From: Phyllobacterium myrsinacearum
Lineage (GTDB): Bacteria; Pseudomonadota; Alphaproteobacteria; Rhizobiales; Rhizobiaceae
DNA length: 64,000 nucleotides
Assembly (NCBI RefSeq): GCF_002980555.1
Contig: NZ_PVBT01000005.1
Coordinates: 186,001-250,000 of the forward strand
Direction of reading: 5' to 3'
Below are positions 1,211-25,556 of this stretch, piece by piece. How positions within the stretch are numbered: position 1 is the first letter of the stretch; each line of letters starts with the position of its first letter. Both the position numbers and the translations under genes were made by a program. Under the pieces are notes generated by a model. The model was not told where the DNA came from. It was given only the letters and a program-made list of their open reading frames with translations, and searched no databases.

Positions 1211-1221
1211 GCTTACGCGAA
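1211..1221 (-). promoter_or_regulatory. Flagellar box upstream of flhA
   Basis: Read on the minus strand the site is TTCGCGTAAGC, ending 39 nt before the flhA GTG. It matches the box before fliF (TTCGCGCAAGC) at ten of eleven positions, and the following TTCG is also shared. Similar boxes occur at a similar distance before flgE, flgB, motA and the DUF1217-flgF unit. A role as an FtcR/Rem binding site is inferred. Confidence 0.6.
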
Positions 1222-1290
1222 GCCAAAGCGGCCGCGCTGGCTGGTTGCCACGCCCGCTTCTGCGTCTGGCTGTTGAAAGAGGAGAATGAC

Positions 1291-1356
1291 GGGCGGTCCT
1301 TGGAACGCGGGTCTTGGGTTATGCTGTATGCGATGCTTGCGATCCAAGGACCACCC
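1291..1356. repeat. Inverted repeat in the fliQ-flhA gap
   Basis: GGGCGGTCCTTGGA (1291-1304) pairs with TCCAAGGACCACCC (1343-1356) at 13 of 14 positions around a 38-nt loop. A second inverted repeat follows: GTCCTTTCC (1451-1459) with GGAAAGGAC (1493-1501), which encloses the perfect palindrome ACTTTCGAAAGT (1462-1473). Neither is followed by a T run, so neither is a standard intrinsic terminator. Confidence 0.6.
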
Positions 1357-1591
1357 GCTCCGGCGGTTTTGAGGTTTTACCCAATGGGCCAGCATTGAGC
1401 CAAACCTCCCCGGCCGCACAGGTTTTCTTCCCCGTGAGGCCGAAGCGCCGGTCCTTTCCCGACTTTCGAAAGTTTCCGGAAGCATTCCCGCCGGAAAGGA
1501 CACGAGAAAGATAACTTGGGTTGGGAGAACGTGGATAAGTTGGCGTGGTTTTTATTTGGGTGGAAAAATTACAGTGCGCGGTTCGACAGGC

Positions 1592-1858
1592 TCAAAAGCC
1601 CTTTTCGATCCGCGAATAGGTGAGCAGGGTCAGCGTGTTGATCTGCGAGCCGACGAAGGGAGCCGTCAGCGCCAGCACGGCGAGAATGACGATGATCTTC
1701 GGAACGAAGGTCAGCGTGACTTCCTGGATTTGGGTCAGGGCCTGGAACAGGGCGATGATGACGCCTGCCAGCATGGCGGCGCCCACGGCCGGGCCAGCGG
1801 CGACAATCACCGTCCAGATCGCCTGGTTGACGATGTCGAGCGCATCGGCCTCATTCAT
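1592..1858 (-). CDS. fliQ: FliQ, flagellar export gate subunit
   Basis: An 88-residue protein with two hydrophobic helices (about residues 15-40 and 50-75), the usual size and shape of FliQ, which packs with FliP and FliR to form the export gate in the basal body. The motif ALTQIQEVTLTFVPK in the loop between helices is characteristic. It is the last gene of the flgE-flgK-flgL-flaF-flbT-flgD-fliQ run and starts 16 nt after the flgD stop codon. Confidence 0.95.
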   Translation of the reverse strand: MNEADALDIVNQAIWTVIVAAGPAVGAAMLAGVIIALFQALTQIQEVTLTFVPKIIVILAVLALTAPFVGSQINTLTLLTYSRIEKGF

Positions 1859-1874
1859 AGTCGGCGGCGGGCGG

Positions 1875-2273
1875 TCAACTGATGACGATGCCGGCGGTGA
1901 TCGGCAGTTCCGCCCCGCCCTTGAGCTTGGCGATCATGCCGTCGCTGTAAATCTTGACCGATTCCACCACGCCGGTGACCTTGCCGTCGGCGCTGGTGAC
2001 GGTCCGGCCGATGATCCCGTCCGCCTGCGACAGCGAGGAACTGGCGAGAATCTGGTCGAGCTTCTTGTTCATCAGCGTCGCCTGCTCGACATTGGAGAAC
2101 TGGGCGAGCTGCGCCACGTACTGGGTGCCGTCCATCGGCTGCGTCGGATCCTGGTTCTTCATCTGCGCCACGAGCAGCTTCAGGAAGGACTGGTAGTCGA
2201 CGCTTGGTCCGCCGGTCTTGGACGTGTCCGGTGTATTGCCGGTTGATGATCCTACGGGAGGTGTGGTGGTCAT
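1875..2273 (-). CDS. flgD: FlgD, hook capping scaffold (short form)
   Basis: A 132-residue hook-assembly scaffold. The N-terminal part holds the FlgD signature: FLKLLVAQMKNQDPTQPMD at about residues 30-48, followed by AQFSNVEQ. Enteric FlgD is over 200 residues. This short form, without the large C-terminal Tudor/FnIII region, is usual in rhizobia. FlgD caps the growing hook so that FlgE can polymerise. The start overlaps the flbT stop as ATGA (2270-2273), which points to coupled translation. Confidence 0.93.
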   Translation of the reverse strand: MTTTPPVGSSTGNTPDTSKTGGPSVDYQSFLKLLVAQMKNQDPTQPMDGTQYVAQLAQFSNVEQATLMNKKLDQILASSSLSQADGIIGRTVTSADGKVTGVVESVKIYSDGMIAKLKGGAELPITAGIVIS

Positions 2274-2710
2274 GCGATTGCCTCCGGCCGGTTTGGCTGA
2301 TCCGAATGGGTGGGATGGGTGGTTTCAAGCGTGCCGGAGAGGATTTGCGCCTCCAGCGGATAGAGCAGCCGTATGGCCTTGAGCGCCTCGAACACCCGGT
2401 CGTTGCAAACGATCTCGTCGATCAGCTTCAACTCCTTGAGCATCAGCGGATTCTCGAAGGTGGCCAAAAGGTTTGCCAGCATGCGCTTGAAGGTGATGTT
2501 GGCTTCGTTCCTGATCAGCGGATTGATCAGCATGATCTGTGCCGCATAATAGAGCTGGCGCAGCGGCGTCGTCGTCTCGTCCGCCTGCAGGACGTGGCTC
2601 TCGAGCAGGAACGTCACATCGTTGAGAAACTCAAGGGAAACCTTGCGGTCAGCGCACAGGATAGCGCCGTTGATGTAGACTTTCTCGCCGGCGCGCAGGG
2701 TGATTTTCAT
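2270..2710 (-). CDS. flbT: FlbT, flagellin translation regulator
   Basis: A 146-residue protein of the alphaproteobacterial FlbT family. It opens with MKITLRAGEKVYINGAIL and contains RKVSLEFLNDVTFLLES, both typical. In Caulobacter FlbT binds the 5' leader of flagellin mRNA and promotes its decay. In Brucella it promotes flagellin production instead. Its neighbour flaF, 5 nt upstream, encodes the usual partner. A candidate target here is the structured leader of fliC (15604-15637), but that link is inferred. Confidence 0.93.
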   Translation of the reverse strand: MKITLRAGEKVYINGAILCADRKVSLEFLNDVTFLLESHVLQADETTTPLRQLYYAAQIMLINPLIRNEANITFKRMLANLLATFENPLMLKELKLIDEIVCNDRVFEALKAIRLLYPLEAQILSGTLETTHPTHSDQPNRPEAIA

Positions 2711-23909: not shown

Positions 23910-23940
23910 GCTTATCCGGCCGGGTCAGAGAGACGGTGCA

Positions 23941-24663
23941 TCAGGTCTTCGATCCGAGTGTCTTGATGGCTTCGGAAAAAGTGCCCTCATTGCCGCGCAG
24001 CAGCGCATCGACCCGTTCGAAGGCACGGGTAACACTCATGAGCCGGGTCATTTCGCTGATCGCGTCGACGTTTGATCCTTCGATGGCGCCCTGCACAACG
24101 CCCGCATGCGGATTGTCGATGGTCGGCTGCGCGGCGACACTCGGAATAACAGCCGAATTGTCGAAATAGGTCAGCTTGGCATTGGGACTGATCGTGAACA
24201 GGCCGATGGAGCCCAGCTGGCGCTTGTTCTGATAGATCGCGCCGTCGGCCGAGATCTCCGGCGGACCGGCGTTGGGATCAATGACCAGGGGCTGCCCGCC
24301 CGCATCCAGGATAGGATATCCCTTGACTGAGCGCAGCTCACCCGCCGACGTCATCTGCATGCGGCCGTCACGGGTATAGACCTGCCCGGCCGGTGTCTGC
24401 AGCGAAAACCACACGTCGCCCTTCGCGGCGATATCCAGGGGGTTGCCAGTCTGGCTGATCGGGCCCGCTTCCGTCTTGATATAGCTCTGACCGGCCGAAA
24501 CGAAGCTGGAATCTTCGGCCGCCTTCGACACCATGGTTTCAAATTTCATGCCCGTGGCGCGAAAGCCCGGCGTCGACATGTTCGCCACATTATGCGCCAA
24601 AGCGTCGAGACGGCGCTCCAGCGATATCTGCGAGGACAGGCCGACATAGATCGAGTTTTCCAT
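23941..24663 (-). CDS. flgF: FlgF, proximal rod protein
   Basis: A 240-residue rod protein. The N terminus is MENSIYVGLSSQISLERRLDALAHNVANMSTPGFRATGMKF, and the C-terminal helix EMTRLMSVTRAFERVDALL matches the family. It is separated from the other rod genes and sits between the DUF1217 gene (one-base overlap) and fliI, as in other rhizobia. Confidence 0.94.
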   Translation of the reverse strand: MENSIYVGLSSQISLERRLDALAHNVANMSTPGFRATGMKFETMVSKAAEDSSFVSAGQSYIKTEAGPISQTGNPLDIAAKGDVWFSLQTPAGQVYTRDGRMQMTSAGELRSVKGYPILDAGGQPLVIDPNAGPPEISADGAIYQNKRQLGSIGLFTISPNAKLTYFDNSAVIPSVAAQPTIDNPHAGVVQGAIEGSNVDAISEMTRLMSVTRAFERVDALLRGNEGTFSEAIKTLGSKT

Positions 24664-25442
24664 CAGCGGCCACCCAGCTTGAATGACTGCAGGGTCATCA
24701 GGATGCTTTGCGAGATACCGACTGGCGTGTCGCCGCCAATCAGCAGCGAGGGAATGGCGGAAGCGGTCGAGGGATTGTTCATTTCATACATCGCGGTAAA
24801 CCGGGTGAGGAGTTTTTCGAGCTTCACCGGGTCCTTCAGGGATTTCAGGTCGAGCTTGTCGGTGACCATCTTGGCCTGCCGGTCGATATCCATGTTCGAC
24901 GTCTGCGCCGGAATGGAAAAGGTCGTCTGGAACACCTTGAGCAAGGCCTTGTCGCCAAGGATTTCATAGGCATTGGTGATCGTGGGCGCCTTGCGGGCAA
25001 AATAGAGCGCAAGCCGCACGCCTTCATTGTCCTGCCCGGCTTCCTGCTCCAGCGTCTGGCGCGCATATTTGTCCGTCACCGGCTTGAGCACGGCCGGCTG
25101 GCTCGTCGCCTTGTCGCCAAGCTTGGCAAAATCGAAGGTGGTGGCAAACTCCATGTAGCGCTTGTCCGTCAGCTTGCTGGCAAAGCTGTCCTTGCCGGTG
25201 CCCTCGGTGAGGACCTTGCGGATAAAGGCCTTGGCGAAAGCCATGTCCTCCAGGCCGACGGCCTTCAGGGCATATTTGTACAGCCGGTCATTCTTCATGA
25301 AGTCGTCAATGGTTTTCACCTTGCCGATATTCTTCAGATAATAGTCCGTGTCGCGCTGGACGGCCGGTTCCTGCGCCACCCTTGTCAGCGAACGTGTCAG
25401 ATTCGAAGAGATCAGTTTGTAGCTGGTCATCGTGTTGATCAT
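24663..25442 (-). CDS. DUF1217 flagellar protein
   Basis: A 259-residue DUF1217-family protein, found in alphaproteobacterial flagellar clusters. Its exact role is not established to my knowledge. It is largely helical, with RDTDYYLKNIGKVKTIDDFMKNDRLYKYALKAVGL near the N terminus. The start at MINTMTSYKLI is preferred because GGGAG lies about ten bases before it and the flagellar box then falls at the usual distance (45-55 nt). A start four codons later is also possible. It heads the unit with flgF, fliI and the unknown membrane protein and is divergent from motA. Confidence 0.88.
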   Translation of the reverse strand: MINTMTSYKLISSNLTRSLTRVAQEPAVQRDTDYYLKNIGKVKTIDDFMKNDRLYKYALKAVGLEDMAFAKAFIRKVLTEGTGKDSFASKLTDKRYMEFATTFDFAKLGDKATSQPAVLKPVTDKYARQTLEQEAGQDNEGVRLALYFARKAPTITNAYEILGDKALLKVFQTTFSIPAQTSNMDIDRQAKMVTDKLDLKSLKDPVKLEKLLTRFTAMYEMNNPSTASAIPSLLIGGDTPVGISQSILMTLQSFKLGGR

Positions 25443-25486
25443 GGCAATGGCACTCCCAAGGCTTTCGCCTATCTGTGCCAAAGCAA

Positions 25487-25497
25487 GCTTGCCTGAA
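25487..25497 (-). promoter_or_regulatory. Flagellar box upstream of DUF1217-flgF
   Basis: On the minus strand the site reads TTCAGGCAAGC, followed by TTGC. It lies 45 nt before the DUF1217 start in the 161-nt divergent region with motA. It is the weakest match to the consensus (one core mismatch) but keeps spacing and orientation. Confidence 0.5.
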
Positions 25498-25539
25498 GCT
25501 GTCCGCGCAATTCCAGCCAAGGCTCCCCTGCTTCCATCT

Positions 25540-25556
25540 GCAAGGTTCACGCAAGC
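25540..25556 (+). promoter_or_regulatory. Flagellar box upstream of motA
   Basis: GCAAGGTTCACGCAAGC contains two GCAAG units 11 bp apart and the core TTCACGCAAGC (25546-25556), identical to the flgE core. It ends 47 nt before the motA TTG start, and its orientation follows motA. Confidence 0.65.

What the first reader, a model, noticed from the sequence alone, without database searches (positions are those of the whole stretch)
1211..25556. One DNA box before six flagellar operons: TTCRCGCAAGC, 39-55 nt from the start codon
The same element appears before flhA (1211-1221), flgE (7000-7010), fliF (14546-14556), flgB (21899-21915), DUF1217-flgF (25487-25497) and motA (25540-25556). It always has the orientation of the gene, and the start codons were chosen independently. 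flgB and motA carry a second GCAAG 11 bp upstream, a spacing of one helical turn. fliC and ftcR lack it. An orphan OmpR-type activator (FtcR/Rem) is encoded in the same island, and such regulators usually bind direct repeats, so I infer this is its target and defines the middle gene class.
Basis: partly seen in the sequence, partly recalled or inferred. Interest (0 to 1): 0.75.

Follow-up and report, generated by a model that had tools for sequence, protein, structure and literature searches.

The report
Flagellar gene activator's DNA landing site
Six flagellar operons of a Phyllobacterium share one short DNA switch, placed where an activator of the FtcR/Rem type would be expected to bind, and the same switch precedes the same genes in relatives that carry that activator.

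Summary
The 11-mer is the downstream half of a tandem site, two RCAAGSYT units 11 bp apart (left one degenerate), with a -10 hexamer TAnnnT starting 10 nt after the right CAAG. A matrix built from 35 other genera ranks the six reported boxes 1-5 and 7 in the window. In those genera the core lies in sense before 153 of 179 copies of the six operon heads, against 7 of 485 upstream regions of other genes of the island. The tandem site covers the -35 place, as in PhoB/OmpR-type class II promoters. Outside the family the matrix hits 17 of 20 flagellar regions of FtcR+ genomes and 0 of 20 of FtcR- ones. VisN, the rival regulator, has no match in the window's genome. FtcR is therefore the most likely binder: inferred, not shown. 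Against it: a published B. melitensis FtcR ChIP motif, TGTGGGCA, is unrelated and absent from these promoters. Control of class II genes by Rem is known; I found no held paper that prints this box, but the key paper (Rotter 2006) could not be read. ftcR itself lacks the box and has its own conserved dyad.

The parts
1196..1227 (-). FtcR-box promoter of flhA: TTTGGC-TTCGCGTAAG-N10-TATGCT
   Evidence: PWM rank 5, 18.8 bits; conserved in Phyllobacterium and Brucella-type loci
6984..7016 (-). FtcR-box promoter of flgE: GTCAGG-TTCACGCAAG, -10-like TACGAT after 11 nt instead of 10
   Evidence: PWM rank 4, 18.9 bits
14531..14562 (-). FtcR-box promoter of fliF: TCTAAC-TTCGCGCAAG-N10-TATGGT
   Evidence: PWM rank 2, 29.0 bits
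21883..21914 (-). FtcR-box promoter of flgB: GCAAGT-CTCACGCAAG-N10-TAGAGT, two full CAAG half-sites 11 bp apart
   Evidence: PWM rank 1, 31.1 bits
25472..25503 (-). FtcR box of DUF1217-flgF: GACAGC-TTCAGGCAAG, no TAnnnT at the usual place (weakest of the six)
   Evidence: PWM rank 7, 12.8 bits, below the best random score
25540..25571 (+). FtcR-box promoter of motA: GCAAGG-TTCACGCAAG-N10-TAGGAC, two full CAAG half-sites 11 bp apart, divergent to the DUF1217 box
   Evidence: PWM rank 3, 25.6 bits
7076..7747 (-). ftcR/rem, orphan OmpR-type response regulator; Glu where RegX3 has Asp in the receiver (GTG start inferred)
   Evidence: Pfam Trans_reg_C 9e-15; Response_reg 25.8 bits, below its cut-off of 30.2; alignment to RegX3; start codon
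7822..7846 (-). dyad CCAATTAATTGCGGTCAATTAGTTG in front of ftcR (not an FtcR box)
   Evidence: conserved by eye in Phyllobacterium and, more loosely, Brucella-type loci; one place in the genome
5665..6951 (-). flgE
   Evidence: Pfam
12857..14503 (-). fliF
   Evidence: Pfam
25604..26476 (+). motA (TTG start inferred from relatives)
   Evidence: Pfam

Best explanation
The box is the promoter-proximal half of a tandem binding site for the orphan OmpR/PhoB-type activator FtcR (Rem), encoded just upstream of its target flgE. A head-to-tail FtcR dimer reads two RCAAGSYT half-sites 11 bp apart, the left one degenerate and the right one strict. The right half ends 7 nt before a sigma-70-type -10 element, so the pair lies over the place of the missing -35 element and recruits RNA polymerase as a class II activator. 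This switches on flhA, flgE, fliF, flgB, DUF1217-flgF and motA together, while ftcR, which lacks the box, is controlled from above, perhaps through its own dyad. Shown here: the sequence element, its spacing, orientation and conservation, and its concentration in FtcR+ genomes. Inferred: that FtcR is the protein that binds, that the -10 is used, that the effect is activation, and what the dyad does.
For: Out-of-sample matrix recovers the six sites in the window. Core in sense before 153 of 179 operon heads in 35 genera against 7 of 485 regions of other genes of the island; of the TAnnnT found 4 to 16 nt after the core of the heads, 92 of 96 lie exactly 10 nt after it. With 260 bp and the matrix: 161 of 178 (in sample) against 5 of 485. 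Logo columns not used for selection: A 94% at -3, T 87%, A 98%, T 70% in the -10. Within Phyllobacterium the box columns are 91-96% identical while the upstream flank is 41-45%. Exact composite pattern: 103 hits in 44 of 51 FtcR+ family genomes, 2 hits in 2 of 10 FtcR- ones, 5 reversed-control hits. In the order, among FliF+ genomes: 17 of 32 FtcR+ against 2 of 84 FtcR- (Fisher p 7e-10; outside the family 11 of 26 against 2 of 84, p 1e-6). Matrix in stretches around fliF outside the family: 37 hits in 17 of 20 FtcR+, 0 in 20 FtcR-; 30 of the 37 precede flagellar genes by my reading. No VisN match at E <= 1e-10 in the own genome, G016 or G050, where boxes persist. DNA-binding domain of FtcR, recognition helix included, strongly conserved in 41 sequences. 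Passages of PMC8429497 and PMC9812332: Rem activates class II flagellar genes and works without phosphorylation.
Against: No binding, footprint or transcription-start data. A ChIP-seq study of FtcR in B. melitensis reports TGTGGGCA (118 of 363 peaks, supported by EMSA; PMC9456535, passages), unrelated to this box; that 8-mer occurs in 1 of 76 ftcR upstream regions here and in none of 302 upstream regions of the six operon heads. FtcR+ genomes also carry a distinct flagellar lineage (in the order their FliF matches are stronger than 1e-115, save G164 at 1.5e-76; FtcR- genomes 3e-79 or weaker), so co-occurrence could be common descent and not binding. 15 of 32 FtcR+ FliF+ order genomes lack the exact pattern, 7 of 51 in the family, and 3 of 20 FtcR+ regions give no matrix hit, one of them cut short by a contig end. 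Genome-wide, simple patterns are no more frequent than, or only twice as frequent as, reversed controls. Other stretches of the FtcR DNA-binding domain are as conserved as the recognition helix.
Confidence: 0.85

Rival explanations
1. The element is a real activator site but is read by another regulator, such as the LuxR-type pair VisNR or another OmpR-type regulator.
For: LuxR-type proteins taken as VisN and VisR (GerE domain, beside fliF) exist in relatives: 16 of 61 family genomes match VisN at E <= 4.4e-49, and weaker matches, several of them near motA, bring the total to 42 of 61. The own genome holds 27 matches to FtcR at E <= 1e-3, so other OmpR-type regulators are at hand.
Against: No VisN match at E <= 1e-10 in the own genome, G016, G050 or five further fetched genomes that keep boxes (G032, G037, G041, G042, G052), although a very distant VisN could be missed. 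A tandem direct repeat of one helical turn fits OmpR-type binding (recalled). Literature places VisNR upstream of rem (PMC8429497, passages).
Confidence: 0.08
2. The box is the -35 element of an alternative sigma factor promoter, with TAnnnT as its -10.
For: Fixed distance of 10 nt to the -10 hexamer.
Against: A 10-nt gap between the CAAG core and the -10 is far shorter than a sigma -35/-10 spacer of 16-19 nt (recalled), and the conserved left half 11 bp upstream has no role in such a promoter.
Confidence: 0.04
3. Chance resemblance helped by GC-rich composition and by choosing start codons.
For: The 11-mer with two mismatches is not enriched in the window; genome counts of simple patterns hardly exceed reversed controls; the DUF1217 site scores below the best random window.
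Against: Out-of-sample ranking, 153 of 179 against 7 of 485, conservation above flanks, 17 of 20 against 0 of 20.
Confidence: 0.01
4. The box is a repressor or silencer site (for example of a MucR- or CtrA-like protein) overlapping the promoter.
For: Sites over -35 can repress (recalled).
Against: Not a TTAA-N7-TTAA motif (CtrA consensus as in PMC6180460 and PMC3616915, passages); no -35 consensus is left for basal transcription, and rem mutants are non-motile (PMC8429497, passages).
Confidence: 0.02

Closest known systems
Rem regulon of Sinorhizobium meliloti (VisNR-Rem cascade; Rotter et al. 2006, not readable here; known through passages of PMC8429497 and PMC9812332)
   Same: Orphan OmpR-type activator of class II flagellar assembly and motor genes
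   Different: Window genome has no VisN match; whether that paper defined this box could not be checked
FtcR of Brucella melitensis (PMC9456535, passages)
   Same: Same regulator family; loci of Brucella-type relatives carry the box before fliF (21 of 21), flhA (20 of 21) and flgE (14 of 20 at the usual distance)
   Different: Published ChIP motif TGTGGGCA is unrelated to the box
PhoB/OmpR-family class II promoters (pho box; recalled)
   Same: Tandem half-sites about 11 bp apart replacing the -35, sigma-70-type -10
   Different: Half-site RCAAGSYT, left half degenerate, and the receiver domain has Glu in place of the phosphorylated Asp
LafR of Bradyrhizobium diazoefficiens (PMC8429497, passages)
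   Same: Rem homologue in a species without visNR that activates a flagellar gene set
   Different: Controls the lateral flagella, not the polar one; its binding site was not seen in any paper opened here

Membership tests
FtcR/Rem-dependent flagellar promoters | FtcR/Rem orthologue encoded in the genome | tested here: met
   ftcR 7076-7747; 100% identical to the P. calauticae protein over 226 residues
FtcR/Rem-dependent flagellar promoters | Precedes class II operons (hook, basal body, motor, export) | tested here: met
   Six operon heads 153 of 179; other genes of the island 7 of 485
FtcR/Rem-dependent flagellar promoters | Direct binding by FtcR/Rem | not testable with these tools
   No binding data; the one published motif seen, TGTGGGCA, is absent from the six promoters
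PhoB/OmpR-type class II activator promoter | Tandem half-sites about 11 bp apart | tested here: met
   Logo: RYMAGSYT and RCAAGSYT 11 bp apart; in the window clear for flgB and motA, degenerate for the rest
PhoB/OmpR-type class II activator promoter | Fixed spacing to a -10 with no -35 consensus | tested here: met
   TAnnnT at offset 10 in 92 of 96 offset matches; the -35 place reads AGSYTC; DUF1217 and flgE of the window depart
PhoB/OmpR-type class II activator promoter | Transcription start just downstream of the -10 | not testable with these tools
   No 5' end data; only a weak A preference at +32 to +34
VisNR-bound promoter | VisN orthologue present wherever the site is present | tested here: not met
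   No VisN match at E <= 1e-10 in the own genome, G016, G050; a very distant one could be missed

The most novel reading that the evidence does not exclude
One cis-regulatory code, RCAAGSYT-N3-RCAAGSYT-N7-TAnnnT, has been kept with the FtcR/Rem/LafR regulator across families of the order, while the set of genes under it shifts: in the window and in most family genomes examined the flagellin lies outside, whereas in several other families flagellin genes carry the box themselves. The step between class II and class III flagellar genes would then be a movable boundary set by gain or loss of this box, and a regulator without the phosphorylatable aspartate would act by its abundance.
Probability: 0.6. 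Interest if true: 0.6.

Novelty: new member of a known kind. Interest (0 to 1): 0.5.

Why it matters
Rem/FtcR is a known switch of rhizobial flagella, but the papers I could open give no site that explains its flagellar regulon, and the one motif seen in them does not occur at these promoters. A 32-bp signature with fixed -10 spacing would let the flagellar regulon be read from sequence across the order, suggests unlinked members, and makes it directly testable how a regulator without a phosphorylatable aspartate finds and activates its promoters.

Tried and rejected
Simple pattern counts over the own genome show little or no excess over reversed controls; they become informative only with position and with a matrix. 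A hit inside flhB (30223-30232, 16.0 bits) and one beside a gene that I read as siderophore-interacting (L155) were taken as chance. The B. melitensis motif TGTGGGCA was tested and not found at these promoters. VisNR as binder was tested through the distribution of VisN and set aside. My notebook entries contain loose words: the entry describes the FtcR frame of G044 as having an in-frame TAA; one search reports one TAA in the aligned span but an open frame of 223 aa, so I draw nothing from it.

Limits of the counts. G034 (no FtcR orthologue) was left out of the 35-genus counts. Upstream regions whose match began past residue 25, that were cut by a locus end or that met a run of N were left out. 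Of the 22 control genes fliK gave no usable region, and the flgG and flgF hits are probably the same places found twice. The 130-bp limit is too short for flagellin, whose boxes lie further up; one search repeats the count with 260 bp (heads 161 of 178, others 5 of 485, fliC 2 of 30; antisense 8 of 603 without motA and DUF1217). The operon heads came from the finding, and matrix positions 0-9 were selected by a regular expression, so only the other columns are free evidence. Three of the 84 FtcR- FliF matches are weak (about 1e-12) and may not be flagellar.

Papers. Passages only were seen of PMC9456535, PMC8639532, PMC6180460, PMC9812332, PMC8429497, PMC10469942, PMC4018554 and PMC3616915; other papers only as search listings. 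That the box was not found in print rests on search and 72 of one open-licence library. One search, the search for motif letters, listed 25 of 306 papers, so it is a weak test. Rotter 2006 is not held.
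Full report
What is in the window. The window belongs to a Phyllobacterium (its FtcR is 100% identical over 226 residues to that of P. calauticae) and lies at C5:186001-250000 of a 5.44 Mb draft in 44 contigs. The gap from the ten-base core to the start codons that I chose is 39, 49, 43, 53, 45 and 48 nt (flhA, flgE, fliF, flgB, DUF1217, motA).

Is it more than chance? Not by counting the string: with two mismatches the 11-mer occurs 52 times in the window against 68 expected, and 10 exact copies in the genome compare with 5 of the reversed control. 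The answer comes from relatives. I fetched flagellar regions of 36 genomes, each of a different genus of the family, found the operon heads by tblastn, and looked in 130 bp upstream. In the 35 genomes with an FtcR orthologue the core lies in sense in 153 of 179 regions (flhA 23 of 26, flgE 29 of 32, fliF 24 of 28, flgB 25 of 33, DUF1217 19 of 25, motA 33 of 35). Antisense hits of these heads (38) occur only at motA (25) and DUF1217 (13), the divergent pair. Twenty-two other genes of the island, ftcR and fliC among them, give 7 of 485, the level of shuffles (1.2-1.6%). Repeating this with the matrix and 260 bp gives 161 of 178 (in sample) against 5 of 485. A matrix made from 154 sites of these genera, none of them the window's genus, ranks the window's six sites 1, 2, 3, 4, 5 and 7 over both strands of 64 kb; the one intruder, inside flhB, scores 16.0, and ten random windows reach at most 15.2. 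The DUF1217 site (12.8) would not stand out on its own.

Anatomy. Columns not used for choosing sites show two further parts. Upstream there is a second copy of the unit: R Y M A G S Y T at -6 to +1 matches R C A A G S Y T at +5 to +12, 11 bp later; A at -3 is 94%. Downstream TAnnnT begins 10 nt after CAAG; of 96 TAnnnT found 4 to 16 nt after the core, 92 are at exactly 10. The remaining columns carry at most about 0.3 bit; there is a slight A preference 7-9 nt after the -10, where a transcript might start. With a 17-nt spacer the -35 hexamer would read AGSYTC, so there is no consensus -35 (inference). In the window the hexamers at that place are TATGCT (flhA), TATGGT (fliF), TAGAGT (flgB) and TAGGAC (motA); flgE has TACGAT one base later and DUF1217 has none. 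Within Phyllobacterium the core is 91-96% identical between species at flhA, flgE and fliF while the upstream flank is 41-45%.

Which protein? FtcR (Pfam Trans_reg_C 9e-15; the receiver match is below its cut-off) is encoded at 7076-7747, just upstream of flgE. Its receiver has Glu where RegX3 has Asp. Distribution in the family: an exact composite pattern has 103 hits in 44 of 51 FtcR+ genomes, 2 hits in 2 of 10 FtcR- genomes and 5 reversed-control hits. Order: among 116 of 150 genomes with a FliF match, 17 of 32 FtcR+ and 2 of 84 FtcR- carry the pattern. Stretches of up to 20 kb around fliF outside the family: 37 matrix hits of 16 bits or more in 17 of 20 FtcR+ genomes (20 of the 26 available; one stretch was 11.5 kb) and 0 in 20 FtcR- genomes (20 of 84); by my reading, 30 of the 37 precede fliF (9), flgE (6), flgB (3), motA (1), flhA (1) or flagellin (10). 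The DNA-binding domain of FtcR is strongly conserved in 41 sequences, the recognition-helix region (placed from family knowledge) almost invariant, but other stretches of the domain are equally so. VisN, taken from a GerE-domain protein beside fliF in G029, has no match at E <= 1e-10 in the own genome, in G016 or in G050, where the boxes remain; weak VisN-like matches are common elsewhere, so a distant one could be missed. These lines show association and fit. They do not show binding, and FtcR travels with a distinct flagellar lineage.

Conflict. A ChIP-seq study of FtcR in B. melitensis gives TGTGGGCA (PMC9456535, passages). That 8-mer is in 1 of 76 ftcR upstream regions and 0 of 302 upstream regions of the six operon heads. 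Either that motif reflects another mode of binding or the peaks were dominated by other sites; I cannot decide.

What sits above FtcR. ftcR has no box (0 of 35). Upstream of it lies a dyad, CCAATnnATTGnnnnCAATnnnTTG, conserved by eye in Phyllobacterium and more loosely in Brucella-type loci and found at one place in the genome. It is a candidate site for the regulator of FtcR.

A movable boundary. In the window fliC lacks the box (best score -12.4). By an N-terminus pattern, 4 of 15 family genomes and 7 of 15 genomes of other families with a flagellin found in the fetched stretch have a flagellin gene with a box within 260 bp (one search adds L192 and L193, which that pattern missed); by tblastn 2 of 30 fliC regions in the family. 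So whether flagellin belongs to the box class seems to differ between lineages.

What is known. VisNR activates rem and Rem activates class II genes, and rem homologues without visNR exist (passages of PMC8429497, PMC9812332 and PMC4018554). The S. meliloti transcription-start paper (PMC3616915) has no occurrence of 'flagell', fliF or flgB in its main text but lists flaA, flaC and flaD among genes with CtrA motifs. I found no held paper that prints the box (one search listed 25 of 306), but Rotter 2006 could not be read, so priority for the consensus is open. I file it as a new member of a known kind: a PhoB/OmpR-type tandem activator site of a known regulator.

Noticed in passing
window 7822-7846 (-): Imperfect inverted repeat in front of ftcR, CCAATTAATTGCGGTCAATTAGTTG, conserved by eye in relatives and at one place in the genome; possible operator of the regulator above FtcR.
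   Followed up: partly
L167, L171, L172 (G011, G054, G057): Unlinked box before a conserved protein of about 210 aa of unknown function in three genera; a candidate unlinked FtcR target.
   Followed up: partly
L174 (G009) and L181 (G058): Box before a DUF1217-like gene away from motA and before a flagellin gene (my reading of the ORFs).
   Followed up: partly
L029-L034, upstream of flgE: In several Brucella-type loci the nearest core match lies more than 130 nt upstream of flgE (L029-L033) or none is found within 170 nt (L034).
   Followed up: no
window 30223-30232 (+): A 16.0-bit matrix hit inside flhB, just above the best random score; probably chance.
   Followed up: no
window 7076-7747: FtcR receiver has Glu in place of the phosphorylated Asp, so it may act without phosphorylation (PMC9812332 passages say key aspartyl residues of Rem are substituted).
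   Followed up: partly
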